IMG/VR virus record: IMGVR_UViG_3300008470_000022
Coordinates: 1-22,967 of that record
Direction: 5' to 3' (one strand)
Origin: a virus
Length of the DNA: 22,967 nt
Shown: one piece after another, positions 3,959 through 18,832 of the stretch
Position numbering within the stretch: the first letter of the stretch is position 1
Layout: every line of letters begins with the position of its first letter
Program-made: the position numbers and the translations under genes
Notes under the pieces: generated by a model
Told to the model about the DNA's origin: nothing
Seen by the model: the letters and a program-made list of their open reading frames with translations, nothing else
The model's database searches: none

Positions 3959-4225
3959 TTAATTATAGTTAAAATATTTCTTACCTCCTACTCTTACACC
4001 TAAAAAGTATATTACTGCCCAGCACTGATAATAAACTCTCTTAAACCATCCTTTTATTCTAAACGTATCCTTAAGTGTCATTATTAAAAACTTTCCGTCA
4101 CATTCAAATCTTCTAGCTTCATCACCTCCTATCCCATAGGATATATCATGCTTATTGCATGATGCTTCAAAGAATTTACCGTAAGGTAGTCTAATCCAAC
4201 TTCCATCTCCTCCACATCCATTCAT
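3959..4225 (-). CDS. Phospholipase A2-like small phage protein
   Basis: The product is 88 residues. Residues 2-8 are NGCGGDG, a candidate calcium-binding loop. CNKHDISYG (23-31) contains the His-Asp dyad and Tyr of the secretory PLA2 signature CxxHDxxY. FECDGKF (40-46) has a Cys-Asp pair resembling the second catalytic Asp region of PLA2 (CDxxxA). C23 and C42 could form the conserved disulfide. A hydrophobic aromatic stretch (residues 64-79, VYYQCWAVIYFLGVRV) ends the protein and could touch a membrane. Known relatives act on phospholipid sn-2 esters; parvovirus VP1 uses such a domain to breach membranes during entry. It lies among tail genes, 2 bases before the connector gene and just behind a 129-residue unknown, so a virion or lysis role is plausible but unproven. 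The family call is well supported by motif; activity is not shown. Confidence 0.72.
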   Translation of the reverse strand: MNGCGGDGSWIRLPYGKFFEASCNKHDISYGIGGDEARRFECDGKFLIMTLKDTFRIKGWFKRVYYQCWAVIYFLGVRVGGKKYFNYN

Positions 4226-5653: not shown

Positions 5654-7261
5654 TTATGTTCTAGTATAAGAAACCGTTACATTAAGCTTTCCACCGGGAG
5701 TAGTTTTTGATGTTTCAAACCACATACTTTCTCCTGTTTCAAATGTGTTCTCTGCTGTTGGTGTAGATGTAGCACTATTGTTTATTGGAGTATTTGCAGG
5801 AATATCAATAGTTCCGCTTGTCATTATTGTTCCTGCATCATTTTTTGGTATTAATGTTGCGTCATCTGTAGCAGATATATCTTTAGATATAGATGCGTAA
5901 ATATTAAGTATAGTACAATCTATAGGTATCCTAACTCTTGTTATTCCTTGCTCTCCTGTTTCAAAACTTACTACGGTTGTAAAAAAGTCTATTTTAGCCT
6001 CTGCAGATAATTTATCTACTGTTACAGCTTCATTAACTATTTTGTCAGTAGTTATTGAGTTATCTACTATTTTATCAGTTGTTACTGCATCATTGACAAT
6101 CTTATCTGTAGTGATAGCATCATTAACTATTTTACTAGTTGTAATAGCATCGTTAATTACTTTGTCAGTTGTTACAGCATCGTTAATAATTTTATCAGTT
6201 GTAATGGCATCGTTAATGATTTTATCAGTTGTAATGGCATCGTTAATGATTTTATCAGTTGTTACTGAATTGTCTGCTAACTCTGTAGTTCCTATAGATA
6301 AAGCCCCTACAACTATAGGATTCCTAGCTATTTCTTTAAATACCAATCCATCTGTAGGGTCATCAACATATCTCAAGGATATCATTTGATCTGAATCTGA
6401 CATAATAAATGTAGTAGGATTAATTTTTATATTCCCACTAGAAATAGAAGCATCTCTAACTGTAATAGTAAATGCACTATTGTTTACAATTCTTATTTCA
6501 TCATTTATTGAAAAACTTCCTTGTACTACATCTAAATTAGTGTTTCCTGCAGCGTCTACATTGAAATAAGTTAAGTTTGATATTCTCTTAATGTCTAATA
6601 GCGAAGATTCAGATATTGTTTGGCTATGAGTTATTATTTGAGATTGAATACCTCTCATTATAACATCATCCGTAATTTCCAAAACATCCGGGGATGATAT
6701 GTCTGAGTAAGCTGCATCTTCAGATGCGTGTAAGAAATATCTAGCTCCATTAATCGTACTATATATTTCGCCTCCATCGCTACCTCCATCTATATTTACT
6801 GAAGTCCATGTATTTCCTATTAAAGAAGGGTTTACAGAGATAACATGACCATTAACAGAAGATCCTGCCGAAGGTGGTGCTAGTAAAATAACTTTAGTTC
6901 CAGAAGCAACTGCGTTGTAAATAACTCCAGAAGAAGGAATTGTTATATTAATTTCATTTGCTAGTAAAATAGCTGCAGCCTCTTCCTGACCAGATAATAC
7001 TGCTACAGGATTAGTTATCTGATCTATACCATCTATCTTGAAAGGAGATATATTATCGTTAGATGCTAAAGTGTTGAAGTCAAAACTACCAACAGCACCA
7101 ATACTTGATGATACTGGAGCTCTATTTAGAGCATTGTACTTTATTTCTCCGACTCCATTACTATTGTTTTTAGTTCCGGGATTAATGAATGTAGTCCCAT
7201 CATTTTCTGTGATATACAAAAGTCCTACTGAGTTTCCTAAAGATCCTATTGTTGTTGCCAT
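5654..7261 (-). CDS. Fibre/receptor-binding-type structural protein with decapeptide repeats
   Basis: The product is 535 residues, starting 5 bases after the upstream stop. Residues 1-320 are beta-rich, with many Ser, Thr, Asn and Gly and no enzymatic motif. Residues about 324-420 are nine to ten tandem copies of a decapeptide of the form TTDKI(I/V)NDA(I/V), a repeat seen in phage tail fibres and thought to form a trimeric shaft. The end (residues 421-535) is a small beta domain with FETGEQGITRVRIPIDCTILNIYAS and GKLNVTVSYTRT. The layout, an N-terminal attachment part, a repeat shaft and a distal domain, suits a fibre. Its partner may be the next fibre gene. Confidence 0.7.
   Translation of the reverse strand: MATTIGSLGNSVGLLYITENDGTTFINPGTKNNSNGVGEIKYNALNRAPVSSSIGAVGSFDFNTLASNDNISPFKIDGIDQITNPVAVLSGQEEAAAILLANEINITIPSSGVIYNAVASGTKVILLAPPSAGSSVNGHVISVNPSLIGNTWTSVNIDGGSDGGEIYSTINGARYFLHASEDAAYSDISSPDVLEITDDVIMRGIQSQIITHSQTISESSLLDIKRISNLTYFNVDAAGNTNLDVVQGSFSINDEIRIVNNSAFTITVRDASISSGNIKINPTTFIMSDSDQMISLRYVDDPTDGLVFKEIARNPIVVGALSIGTTELADNSVTTDKIINDAITTDKIINDAITTDKIINDAVTTDKVINDAITTSKIVNDAITTDKIVNDAVTTDKIVDNSITTDKIVNEAVTVDKLSAEAKIDFFTTVVSFETGEQGITRVRIPIDCTILNIYASISKDISATDDATLIPKNDAGTIMTSGTIDIPANTPINNSATSTPTAENTFETGESMWFETSKTTPGGKLNVTVSYTRT
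6002..6292 (-). repeat. Tandem 30-base coding repeats (decapeptide shaft)
   Basis: Roughly nine to ten consecutive 30-base units encode the TTDKIINDA-type decapeptide. Some adjacent units are almost identical at the DNA level, especially at 6160-6260, while others have drifted at third positions. Such arrays can gain or lose units by slippage or recombination, changing shaft length in 10-residue steps. The repeat also creates an apparent long frame on the opposite strand, which is not a gene. Confidence 0.88.
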
Positions 7262-12841: not shown

Positions 12842-13135
12842 CTATGTTTTTAGTAGGTCTTCTTTTATTTTATTATTAGAACGATTGTCATCTTGATCTT
12901 TTACAATGTCTCCTTTCTCTCTGTATTCCTGTACATCTGCAACACCTTTTGCACCAATCTTTTTAATGTCTTGGTTAGTTTGATTTTCAGATTCAACCAT
13001 TCTACCTTGAGTAGCATTTTGTTGTTGTTCTTGTATAGCTTGAGATTGAGCCTGTATTCTTTCCTGCTCTCTTTTAGCTTGTAGTTTTTCGTACTGATCT
13101 TCTTTGTATGCTAAAATCATTCTAGCATACTTCAT
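12842..13135 (-). pseudogene. C-terminal part of the portal protein beyond an in-frame TAA
   Basis: This 97-codon frame starts MKYARMILAYKEDQYEKLQ and continues as a Gln/Glu/Lys-rich helix (QSQAIQEQQQNATQGRM), ending in TAG. It is in the same frame as the portal gene: the portal stops at TAA (13157-13159) and seven sense codons (EEIKHGS) lead straight into this ATG. A Gln-rich helical tail after a 'GSxKYAxxxLAYKE' segment is what I expect at the end of crAss-like portals. I therefore read it as the severed C-terminus of the portal. If the ATG is used it would make a separate 97-residue coiled-coil-like peptide. Confidence 0.65.
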
Positions 13136-13156
13136 GCTGCCATGTTTTATTTCTTC

Positions 13157-15085
13157 TTATAGCATAATAACATCAGAAGATCTAATTATTCCTTTCTCTC
13201 CTGCGATATTAACTCTTTGTATAATACGAGCCTTATCTTCTGCTGTAGGTTTAAGATTTAATGATATTCCGTAACTAGAATGGGCTATAGGACTGTTTGT
13301 TTTAAACATTTCCATTAATCCTTTTCCAATAACATTATCATAAGGTTTGTAATCTTTATATCTAATAATATTCTGTATTCTATATGATAAGTCACTAGCT
13401 GTCTTCTCCTTGATTGTTTTGTATGAGAAGTACATTTGATACAATGAATTGTTTGTTCCTTGTTCTGCAAGCTCTGAAGTTGCAACCAGTGCGTTAGGTC
13501 TTGGTGCTGAAGCGTCCATTACTTCGCTAATACCGGTCAGTTGCCTAATCATGTTTATATTAAACTCCATAATCTCCATCTGCTCCTTAAGATATCCACC
13601 AACTCCACCGGGAAGGTCGAATACTGGTCTTCCTGCGTTTGGATTAATAACTTGATTGTGATGTGTTGTAGCACTGAATAATAAATCTCCTGTTTCTCTT
13701 CGTATTTGAAGAACTTGTTTTGGAGTCATTTTGTTTTTTCCAGTAGTAACGTTACTAATAGCATTTATATCTACAGCAATTCCGGGAGGAGCTGCTTTTG
13801 CAAGTGCATTTTGAAAATTTAACCAACCTAAATTTAATCCGTCTTCGTGAGGGATTATAGCTTCTAGCATTGATTTATTGGTAAGCTTATATATGTTGAA
13901 AGGTAGTTTTGCAGTCTTTTTTGTTGGTCTAAGAACATCTTCTTCAACTCCGTATGCGTAAACATAGTCTGTTCCAAGTATCCATTTACAACTGTAAACC
14001 ATTTGCTTTTGTCCAACTAATATTTTTCTTTTTGCGTTAGACTTCTTTTTGTAATCATAAGCAACTGGATTGTGATGCACTTCACCTCTATCATCTGTTC
14101 TGCTTTCCATTTTCATTGTATCAATAGTAAGCCATGCTAGATCTAATACTTCTAAGTTAGTATTTCCATGTCTATCGTAAAACTCCTCAACATTATTATA
14201 TGAATAGTCATAATTGCTATTTCCTTGATTCATTTCTATAATCTGGTCGATTATATCTTCTGGAAGGTCTTCTCCTGCAGCTACCCTCACTTGGTTTGGA
14301 GTTAAACTTTCTAATTCTCCTGCGTAATCAATATTGTCATAGTACTTATGGTTTGAGTTTCTAACAACTAGATCTTCAATATCTACAAATCTTGCCATTG
14401 CTTTTCCTGTAGCAATATCGGTATATGTTCTTGTTGCAATCATTCCTGTATCGAATAAGTTTTCGTACATTCTTTGCTTTATAACTTCCCAATCACTGAT
14501 CTGGAATCCGTCTTTAATTAACTTCTCCATTCCTGCTTCCCATAACAACTTGAAGCTTCCTACTGCTTCCATCATGTTTAGCTCTTCAACTGATTGAGGT
14601 ATTATCTGTTGTGCTTGGTCTTGTTCTACACCTACAGACATCATCTCTTTAAATGGTTCTAGGGCTCTTGAAAGTTCTGCTTTAGCCCAAACTTTAAGCC
14701 TCATCATTTCTCTTTCTTTTCCAGAGTTTTCGTCAATTGCTGAAGCTATAATGTCGTGATGTTGTTGTAAGAACTTTCCAATTACTATACTTCTGAATTT
14801 TGGAATAACGGAAATTGGTGCAAGACTCAAATCTAAAAGAGTCTTACGTTTGCCTACTTTATCTTTTGGGCAAACCATATCTATATACTTTTCAGATGGT
14901 TGTCTTCCTTCAGCATATAGTTTCAATAGTGCAATATCCCTTTTTTTAGAACCTCTAGCTCCACCCTGATCTCTTAGGTGTTGACTATATGCAGCTTTAG
15001 CAAAATCTAAGTTGTATTTAGGTAAACCTTTTAGGTTTGGGTCTATGTTATCTTTAGGGAATTTACTAGAACTTAAATCTGACAT
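13157..15085 (-). CDS. Portal protein, truncated by an in-frame stop
   Basis: The portal forms the dodecameric ring at the capsid vertex through which DNA enters and leaves. I start it at ATG 15085 (MSDLSSSKFP); a TTG two codons earlier is also in frame. The product is 642 residues. Features: KRDIALLKLYAEGRQPSEKYIDM near residues 48-70, the segment NLFDTGMIATRTYTD with FVDIEDLVVRNS (clip-to-wing region), and LNLGWLNFQNALAKAAPPGIAVD followed by QVLQIRRETGDLLFS and LTGISEVMDASAPRPNALVATSELAEQGTNNSL, which I recognise as conserved in crAss-like and related portals. The last codons (SSDVIML) precede TAA, after which the same frame continues to 12842. Reading through would give 747 residues, close to the usual length of these portals. 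Position directly after the large terminase confirms the call. Confidence 0.85.
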   Translation of the reverse strand: MSDLSSSKFPKDNIDPNLKGLPKYNLDFAKAAYSQHLRDQGGARGSKKRDIALLKLYAEGRQPSEKYIDMVCPKDKVGKRKTLLDLSLAPISVIPKFRSIVIGKFLQQHHDIIASAIDENSGKEREMMRLKVWAKAELSRALEPFKEMMSVGVEQDQAQQIIPQSVEELNMMEAVGSFKLLWEAGMEKLIKDGFQISDWEVIKQRMYENLFDTGMIATRTYTDIATGKAMARFVDIEDLVVRNSNHKYYDNIDYAGELESLTPNQVRVAAGEDLPEDIIDQIIEMNQGNSNYDYSYNNVEEFYDRHGNTNLEVLDLAWLTIDTMKMESRTDDRGEVHHNPVAYDYKKKSNAKRKILVGQKQMVYSCKWILGTDYVYAYGVEEDVLRPTKKTAKLPFNIYKLTNKSMLEAIIPHEDGLNLGWLNFQNALAKAAPPGIAVDINAISNVTTGKNKMTPKQVLQIRRETGDLLFSATTHHNQVINPNAGRPVFDLPGGVGGYLKEQMEIMEFNINMIRQLTGISEVMDASAPRPNALVATSELAEQGTNNSLYQMYFSYKTIKEKTASDLSYRIQNIIRYKDYKPYDNVIGKGLMEMFKTNSPIAHSSYGISLNLKPTAEDKARIIQRVNIAGEKGIIRSSDVIML

Positions 15086-18154: not shown

Positions 18155-18832
18155 TTAATTGTTGTAAATACTTAGGAGTTCTTTTCTTTGAGCCCTGAAA
18201 TAGGTTTCATCTAGGCTTTGGTGCATTCCATACTCTAAAGGAATGTCTGAATGAGGAAGGAATATAACGTTATCACCTTTACTTACATCTATTCCTTCAT
18301 CTGTTTCAGAACCATAAAAATATTCCGTTACAGGTTCTCCTACATGGATTATTTCACCCATTAAAGGATCGTGTGATTGTCTGTCTTTTGGAAGTGTATC
18401 AATGTATTTCTTGTCTTTATCCACGAACTTGGCTACAGGTTTAAGAAGCATCCATCCATTAAACATAATCATTTCTTCATTACGTATTCCACAAAACAAA
18501 CTATCGTGTTCTATGAATATATAGAACTTGCCATTTTCACGAAACACTTTCTTTTGACTTACTGCTTTATTTATCTGCAAGTAATGGAAGTAGACCTTAT
18601 CTCCGGGCTTAACTCTTATCTCAGTAAGATATTCTACAGAGTTTGCTCCATCTTCTTGATTGAAGTATAAATATTCAGGGATAACTTTTACTATACCTGA
18701 AGTCTGTGCGTGTTGTTCTTTTCCAAAAGAAGGATCAACAATTATTTGATAACCATCTTCAAACGCTATTTTTTTATGTCTTAAACAATCTACTTCTATT
18801 AGTAGATGATTTTTAGGAATCCTTTTTATCAT
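18155..18832 (-). CDS. Tandem GroES-like (Cpn10) co-chaperonin-type protein
   Basis: The product is 225 residues, about twice the length of GroES (near 97). Two successive segments follow the GroES order. First: HLLIEVD (9-15), SGIVKVIP (45-52), VKPGDKVYFHY (74-84), then IRNEEMIMFNG (116-126). Second: WMLLKPV (127-133), GEIIHVGEP (159-167), VSKGDNVIFLPH (183-194), then YFRAQRKELLSIY (211-223). Each has the 'G-x-V/I-x-x-V-G/P', 'V-k-x-G-D-x-V-x-F' and final '(E/R)xxIlai' pattern of Cpn10 domains. Phage co-chaperonins such as T4 gp31 replace host GroES for folding the capsid protein, and this gene heads the packaging-head transcript. No obvious mobile-loop IVL triad is visible between strands, so interaction with GroEL is uncertain. 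Confidence 0.55.
   Translation of the reverse strand: MIKRIPKNHLLIEVDCLRHKKIAFEDGYQIIVDPSFGKEQHAQTSGIVKVIPEYLYFNQEDGANSVEYLTEIRVKPGDKVYFHYLQINKAVSQKKVFRENGKFYIFIEHDSLFCGIRNEEMIMFNGWMLLKPVAKFVDKDKKYIDTLPKDRQSHDPLMGEIIHVGEPVTEYFYGSETDEGIDVSKGDNVIFLPHSDIPLEYGMHQSLDETYFRAQRKELLSIYNN

What the first reader, a model, noticed from the sequence alone, without database searches (positions are those of the whole stretch)
13136..13180. Portal gene interrupted by one in-frame TAA
The portal frame (from 15085) stops at TAA 13157-13159 after SSDVIML, yet the same frame runs on through EEIKHGS into a 97-codon frame (MKYARMILAYKE..., Gln-rich helix) to TAG at 12842. Without the stop the protein would be 747 residues, close to what I expect of crAss-like portals, and the tail sequence looks like the end of one. 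Explanations are a sequencing error, a nonsense mutation in a decaying phage, or programmed readthrough/reinitiation making two portal forms. TAA ends many other genes here, so global reassignment is unlikely.
Basis: partly seen in the sequence, partly recalled or inferred. Interest (0 to 1): 0.72.

Follow-up and report, generated by a model that had tools for sequence, protein, structure and literature searches.

The report
Damaged phage portal gene, false stop
The stop codon in this phage's DNA-gate (portal) gene is real in the contig, but it is most likely a small local lesion or assembly error in an ordinary one-piece gene and not a programmed signal, because about 140 relatives read straight through this point and the conserved amino-acid motif is still there in the DNA, pushed out of frame.

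Summary
In detail: the portal frame (from 15085, - strand) stops at TAA 13159-13157 after 642 codons and continues open, with full coding bias, to TAG 12844-12842. It is a crAss-like portal: PHROG 6547 aligns through the stop, and the read-through model best matches the phicrAss001 portal over its whole length. None of 144 homologous portals that reach this point ends there. The stop falls on a near-invariant arginine (61/62 and 139/142 homologs in two alignments), whose codons all lie at least two substitutions from TAA.

New here: the segment around the stop is one codon longer than in any homolog (14, against 11 in 142 and 13 in 2). In the +2 frame the same bases (13163-13152) read AIRR, the family motif, in exact register between the flanking in-frame parts. 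So two tiny compensating length changes, not a simple nonsense substitution, probably made the stop. Whether they are consensus errors or a real null mutation cannot be decided without reads; I lean to error. Programmed readthrough, paired frameshifting or a split two-chain portal is not excluded but unsupported: no relative has the stop, no close relative was found, no suppressor tRNA lies in the window.

The parts
13160..15085 (-). Portal gene, N-terminal 642 codons (clip, stem, wing and most of the crown)
   Evidence: PHROG 6547 portal protein E=2.3e-59; 20-30% identity to crAss-like portals
13157..13159 (-). In-frame TAA, on the column of a near-invariant arginine
   Evidence: R in 61/62 and 139/142 homologs; Arg codons AGA/CGT/AGG/CGC/CGA in homologs, none one step from TAA
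13152..13163 (-). Conserved motif AIRR encoded in the +2 frame, in exact register between the in-frame DVI before it and IK after it
   Evidence: Best off-frame profile match in the gene; 0/62 homologs, 18/2000 local shuffles, 6/1238 window segments reach its score; only 4 of 45,910 four-codon stretches of the window, both strands, score as high on those columns
12842..13156 (-). In-frame continuation: end of the crown helix and barrel helix of the portal, to TAG
   Evidence: Adds 11.7 bits to the PHROG 6547 match, which extends to profile position 723/827; coding bias equal to the portal's; model shows helix 651-702
13096..13182 (-). Inverted repeats GATCTTCT/AGAAGATC and GTATGCTA/TAGCATAC around and after the stop; TATGCTA recurs at 13166, 13129 and (inverted) 13113
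   Evidence: fold z -3.6 to -4.1, about tenth of 381 windows

Best explanation
This is an ordinary one-piece crAss-like portal gene carrying one very local lesion. A small length change on each side of the 12 bases that encode the conserved AIRR motif moves the motif into the +2 frame; the two changes together restore the downstream frame (net one extra codon) but leave a TAA in frame 0. As written, translation would give a 642-residue portal without the end of the crown helix and without the C-terminal barrel. Shown: stop, open coding continuation, homology across it, length excess, off-frame motif in register. Inferred: that the motif marks an intact ancestral reading. Origin not decidable here: I put a consensus or assembly error (about 0.5 overall) ahead of a real loss-of-function mutation in this genome (about 0.35), because a portal-null lytic phage should not dominate a sample and all other genes are open.
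For: All 144 homologous portals that reach the site read through it; the 137 closed frames have at least 113 residues beyond it (for 62 of them). None of 163 homologous loci has a split portal. The stop column is a near-invariant Arg, and no Arg codon is one substitution from TAA. The segment from D638 to the K of MKYARM is 14 codons here, against 11 in 142 and 13 in 2 homologs (Cellulophaga phage phi18:3 and Aquimarina longa L171); with AIRR in the +2 frame as the true reading it is 13, a length the family has. AIRR itself occurs in 3 homologs. Off-frame score: 18/2000 shuffles, 6/1238 segments, 0/62 homologs. The rest of the window is a tight row of open genes, with TerL, the scaffold-position gene and MCP in the same order as in L089/L090.
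Against: Four residues is a short motif, found after looking at the data; AGAAGA also arises easily from GAAGAA. Nearest homologs are only about 27-30% identical, so lineage-specific drift in the linker cannot be excluded: frame 0 DVIML also resembles relatives that have AIMIR. Two length errors within about 20 bases and none visible in the other genes is odd for random sequencing error.
Confidence: 0.83

Rival explanations
1. Simple nonsense mutation: a sense codon changed to TAA by substitution in a real genome (decaying provirus or minority variant), with a natural three-codon linker extension beside it.
For: Frame 0 is coding on both sides; linker length varies a little in the family (11 or 13); frame 0 DVIML fits relatives with AIMIR.
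Against: The lost residue is a near-invariant Arg whose codons need at least two substitutions to become TAA; no homolog has a 14-codon segment; leaves the register-exact AIRR unexplained.
Confidence: 0.1
2. Programmed recoding: stop-codon readthrough, or a pair of frameshifts that visits the AIRR frame and returns, makes a long and a short portal; the RNA fold around the stop would stimulate it.
For: Local RNA structure z -3.6 to -4.1, with the stop inside a region enclosed by an 8-bp stem; AIRR lies in an alternative frame; the tail keeps normal coding bias.
Against: About tenth of 381 windows for structure; no stop in any of 144 homologs; two opposite frameshifts within 20 bases would be without precedent known to me, and I see no slippery heptamer; no tRNA gene in the window.
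Confidence: 0.03
3. Split portal: the short portal ends at TAA and the barrel helix is made as a separate 97-residue chain from ATG 13135.
For: ATG 13135 lies at the start of the barrel helix in the model (helix 651-702); P22 portal residues 1-602 without the barrel can be made and crystallised (PMC5290284), so the core could fold alone.
Against: No homolog is split; the cut is inside the last crown helix (636-648), removing a near-invariant Arg; a hydrophobic residue at the ATG column is ordinary in uninterrupted homologs; the six bases right before ATG 13135 are GGCAGC, unlike the A/T-rich contexts of most other starts.
Confidence: 0.02

Closest known systems
Crassvirales portal protein (phicrAss001 gp20, PDB 7QOI/7QOG; PHROG 6547)
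   Same: Fold match over the whole read-through model (E=2.3e-23, probability 1.00); PHROG match through the stop; same gene order TerL-portal-scaffold position-MCP
   Different: Interrupted by TAA at the end of the crown; read-through length 747 against about 760-835 in relatives; only about 20-30% identical to any portal found
Portals of Cellulophaga phage phi18:3 and of Aquimarina longa contig L171
   Same: The only homologs with the 13-residue segment (RIARGNMKQA / RIAKMNIKQA) that this contig would have if AIRR is the true reading
   Different: Uninterrupted; about 21-24% identical overall
Stop-codon reassignment and gene fragmentation in crAss-like phages (PMC7886860)
   Same: Stops inside conserved genes such as the portal are used there as evidence of alternative coding
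   Different: Those are TAG or TGA, genome-wide; here a single TAA in a window where TAA is the usual terminator

Membership tests
Crassvirales-type portal protein | Profile match to the crAss-like portal family over the whole length | tested here: met
   PHROG 6547, E=6.7e-63, residues 5-707 with the stop as X; own 62-homolog HMM E about 1e-113, residues 9-732
Crassvirales-type portal protein | Portal fold with C-terminal helical barrel | tested here: met
   Model mean pLDDT 72.8; top PDB hits are the phicrAss001 portal over 748-779 columns; TM about 0.5 and part of the barrel is low confidence; TAA was set to Q for the fold
Crassvirales-type portal protein | Located directly between TerL and the scaffold-position gene plus MCP | tested here: met
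Crassvirales-type portal protein | Single uninterrupted reading frame | tested here: not met
   TAA 13159-13157 in the contig; 163/163 homologous loci uninterrupted
Alternative genetic code (stop reassignment) | The stop codon recurs inside many genes and is avoided as terminator | tested here: not met
   TAA ends 22 of 26 frames; other genes open
Alternative genetic code (stop reassignment) | Matching suppressor tRNA | tested here: inconclusive
   No tRNA in the window, but the record is a 22,967-base fragment
Programmed readthrough or frameshift | Stop or shift site conserved in relatives | tested here: not met
   0 of 144 homologs; no close relative available
Programmed readthrough or frameshift | Both products made | not testable with these tools
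   Needs proteomics or a reporter

The most novel reading that the evidence does not exclude
A phage portal whose crown-barrel junction is deliberately interrupted, so that barrel-less and full-length (or two-chain) portal subunits are both made by recoding at a structured stop site.
Probability: 0.04. Interest if true: 0.75.

Novelty: not a real feature. Interest (0 to 1): 0.15.

Why it matters
It shows how a suspicious stop in a metagenomic phage gene can largely be resolved without reads: by checking register, segment length and off-frame motifs against relatives. For annotation, the contig's portal should be treated as one interrupted gene, not as a 642-residue portal plus a new 97-residue gene, and the stop should not be counted as evidence of stop-codon reassignment.

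Tried and rejected
Close relatives by single-protein pattern scans of portal, TerL and MCP, and by a degenerate DNA pattern across the stop: none found (the MCP scan gave two loci at 27%). The first portal alignment was too diverse to search with. MCP by tblastn in phages: nothing. Sequence search of the PDB: nothing; fold search succeeded. Global stop reassignment rejected. RNA structure as a recoding signal: present but not exceptional. Terminator-like sites near the stop: none. A templated mutation from the nearby TATGCTA/TAGCATA repeats is possible but was not tested.

Full report
OBSERVATION. The frame from ATG 15085 on the - strand encodes 642 residues and stops at TAA 13159-13157; the same frame stays open to TAG 12844-12842. 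The downstream part is coding in that frame: log-odds codon score 0.332, against -0.80 and -0.93 in the other forward frames and 0.353 for the portal. The window is the whole of one virus record of 22,967 bases, so probably a fragment of a larger genome.

IDENTITY. The protein is a crAss-like portal (PHROG 6547, E=2.3e-59). With the stop written as X, the match extends through it to profile position 723 of 827 and gains 11.7 bits. TerL (PHROG 6681) lies upstream, a gene in the scaffold position and the MCP-like gene downstream, the order of Cellulophaga, Maribacter and Flavobacterium phages. The AlphaFold2 model of the read-through protein (TAA set to Q; pLDDT 72.8) best matches the phicrAss001 portal (7QOI/7QOG, E=2.3e-23 over 765 columns). 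In phicrAss001 the C-terminal residues 672-739 form the barrel above the crown (PMC10172136). In the model the stop lies in helix 636-648, followed by a long helix 651-702: the stop removes the end of the crown and the whole barrel.

RELATIVES. TerL- and portal-based scans and phage records gave 163 loci with portal hits. None has a portal split into two frames. The portal-based scan ranks by portal match and could disfavour broken genes; the TerL-based set has no such bias and is also free of splits. All 144 that reach the site read through it; the 137 closed frames have at least 113 residues beyond it. So the portal does not normally end here, and the 97-residue part is not a separate gene in relatives. 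The nearest portals are only about 27-30% identical; no close relative was found, so conservation of the stop within the species or genus could not be tested.

WHAT THE STOP IS. In homologs the region reads D-A-I-x-I-R-x-I-K-N-x-K-L-A. The stop falls on the R, present in 61/62 and 139/142. Homolog codons there are AGA, CGT, AGG, CGC and CGA; none is one substitution from TAA. The segment from D638 to the K of MKYARM is 14 codons here, 11 in 142 homologs and 13 in 2 (phi18:3, Aquimarina longa L171). The +2 frame at 13163-13152 reads AIRR. It follows DVI (frame 0) and precedes IK (frame 0) with no profile column skipped. Its score is the best off-frame match in the gene, reached by 18/2000 local shuffles, 6/1238 window segments and 0/62 homologs; counting fixed columns only, 4 of 45,910 four-codon stretches of the window reach it. 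With AIRR as the true reading the segment is 13 long, as in phi18:3 and L171. The simplest account is a small length change on each side of the motif, compensating each other.

ERROR OR MUTATION. The consensus sequence alone cannot tell. For error: the other genes are open, a virion-producing population without the portal barrel should not dominate, and no relative is broken. For a real event: two changes so close together are unusual for random error, and the 7-mer TATGCTA at the first change recurs as the arms of a hairpin 35-55 bases downstream, which would suit a templated mutation (inference, not tested).

RECODING. A 121-base fold around the stop has z -3.6 or -4.1 with the stop at a fixed offset, against a mean of -0.56 for the window; about ten of 381 windows are as strong. 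Homologs at the same place average -0.5, so the structure is not a family feature. This keeps recoding open at a few percent. TAA reassignment is excluded by its use as the terminator of 22 of 26 frames; reassignments reported in crAss-like phages concern TAG and TGA (PMC7886860). The P22 portal core (residues 1-602) without its barrel can be made and crystallised (PMC5290284) and the last 50 residues of the P22 portal are dispensable (PMC4992974), so a truncated portal need not be wholly dead; this is why a real mutation is not dismissed.

VERDICT. Observation confirmed; most likely not a biological signal. I have not written out a mended gene.

Noticed in passing
window 13182-13096 (- strand): Inverted repeats enclosing the stop site, fold z about -4, among the ten most structured of 381 windows.
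   Followed up: partly
window 10187-10007 and 20027-19367 (- strand): Strongest predicted RNA structures of the window (z to -5.9), after the MCP-like gene and around the small genes at 19.4-20.0 kb; possibly terminators or regulatory elements.
   Followed up: no
window 3959-4225 (- strand): 88-residue protein with a CNKHDISY stretch that recalls small phospholipase A2-like proteins (from memory); matches only PHROG 6098 of unknown function (1.7e-7).
   Followed up: partly
window 18155-18832 (- strand): GroES-like protein (Pfam Cpn10 2e-5) a little upstream of TerL, as in the Cellulophaga and Flavobacterium relatives.
   Followed up: partly
window 5654-7261 (- strand): Tail-fibre-like protein with a run of near-identical TTDKIINDAI repeats, mirrored by a spurious 115-aa antisense frame at 6042-6389.
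   Followed up: no
L171 (Aquimarina longa SW024, NZ_KQ474099.1): A crAss-like portal on an 837-kb bacterial scaffold, near its end: a possible integrated or co-assembled relative.
   Followed up: no
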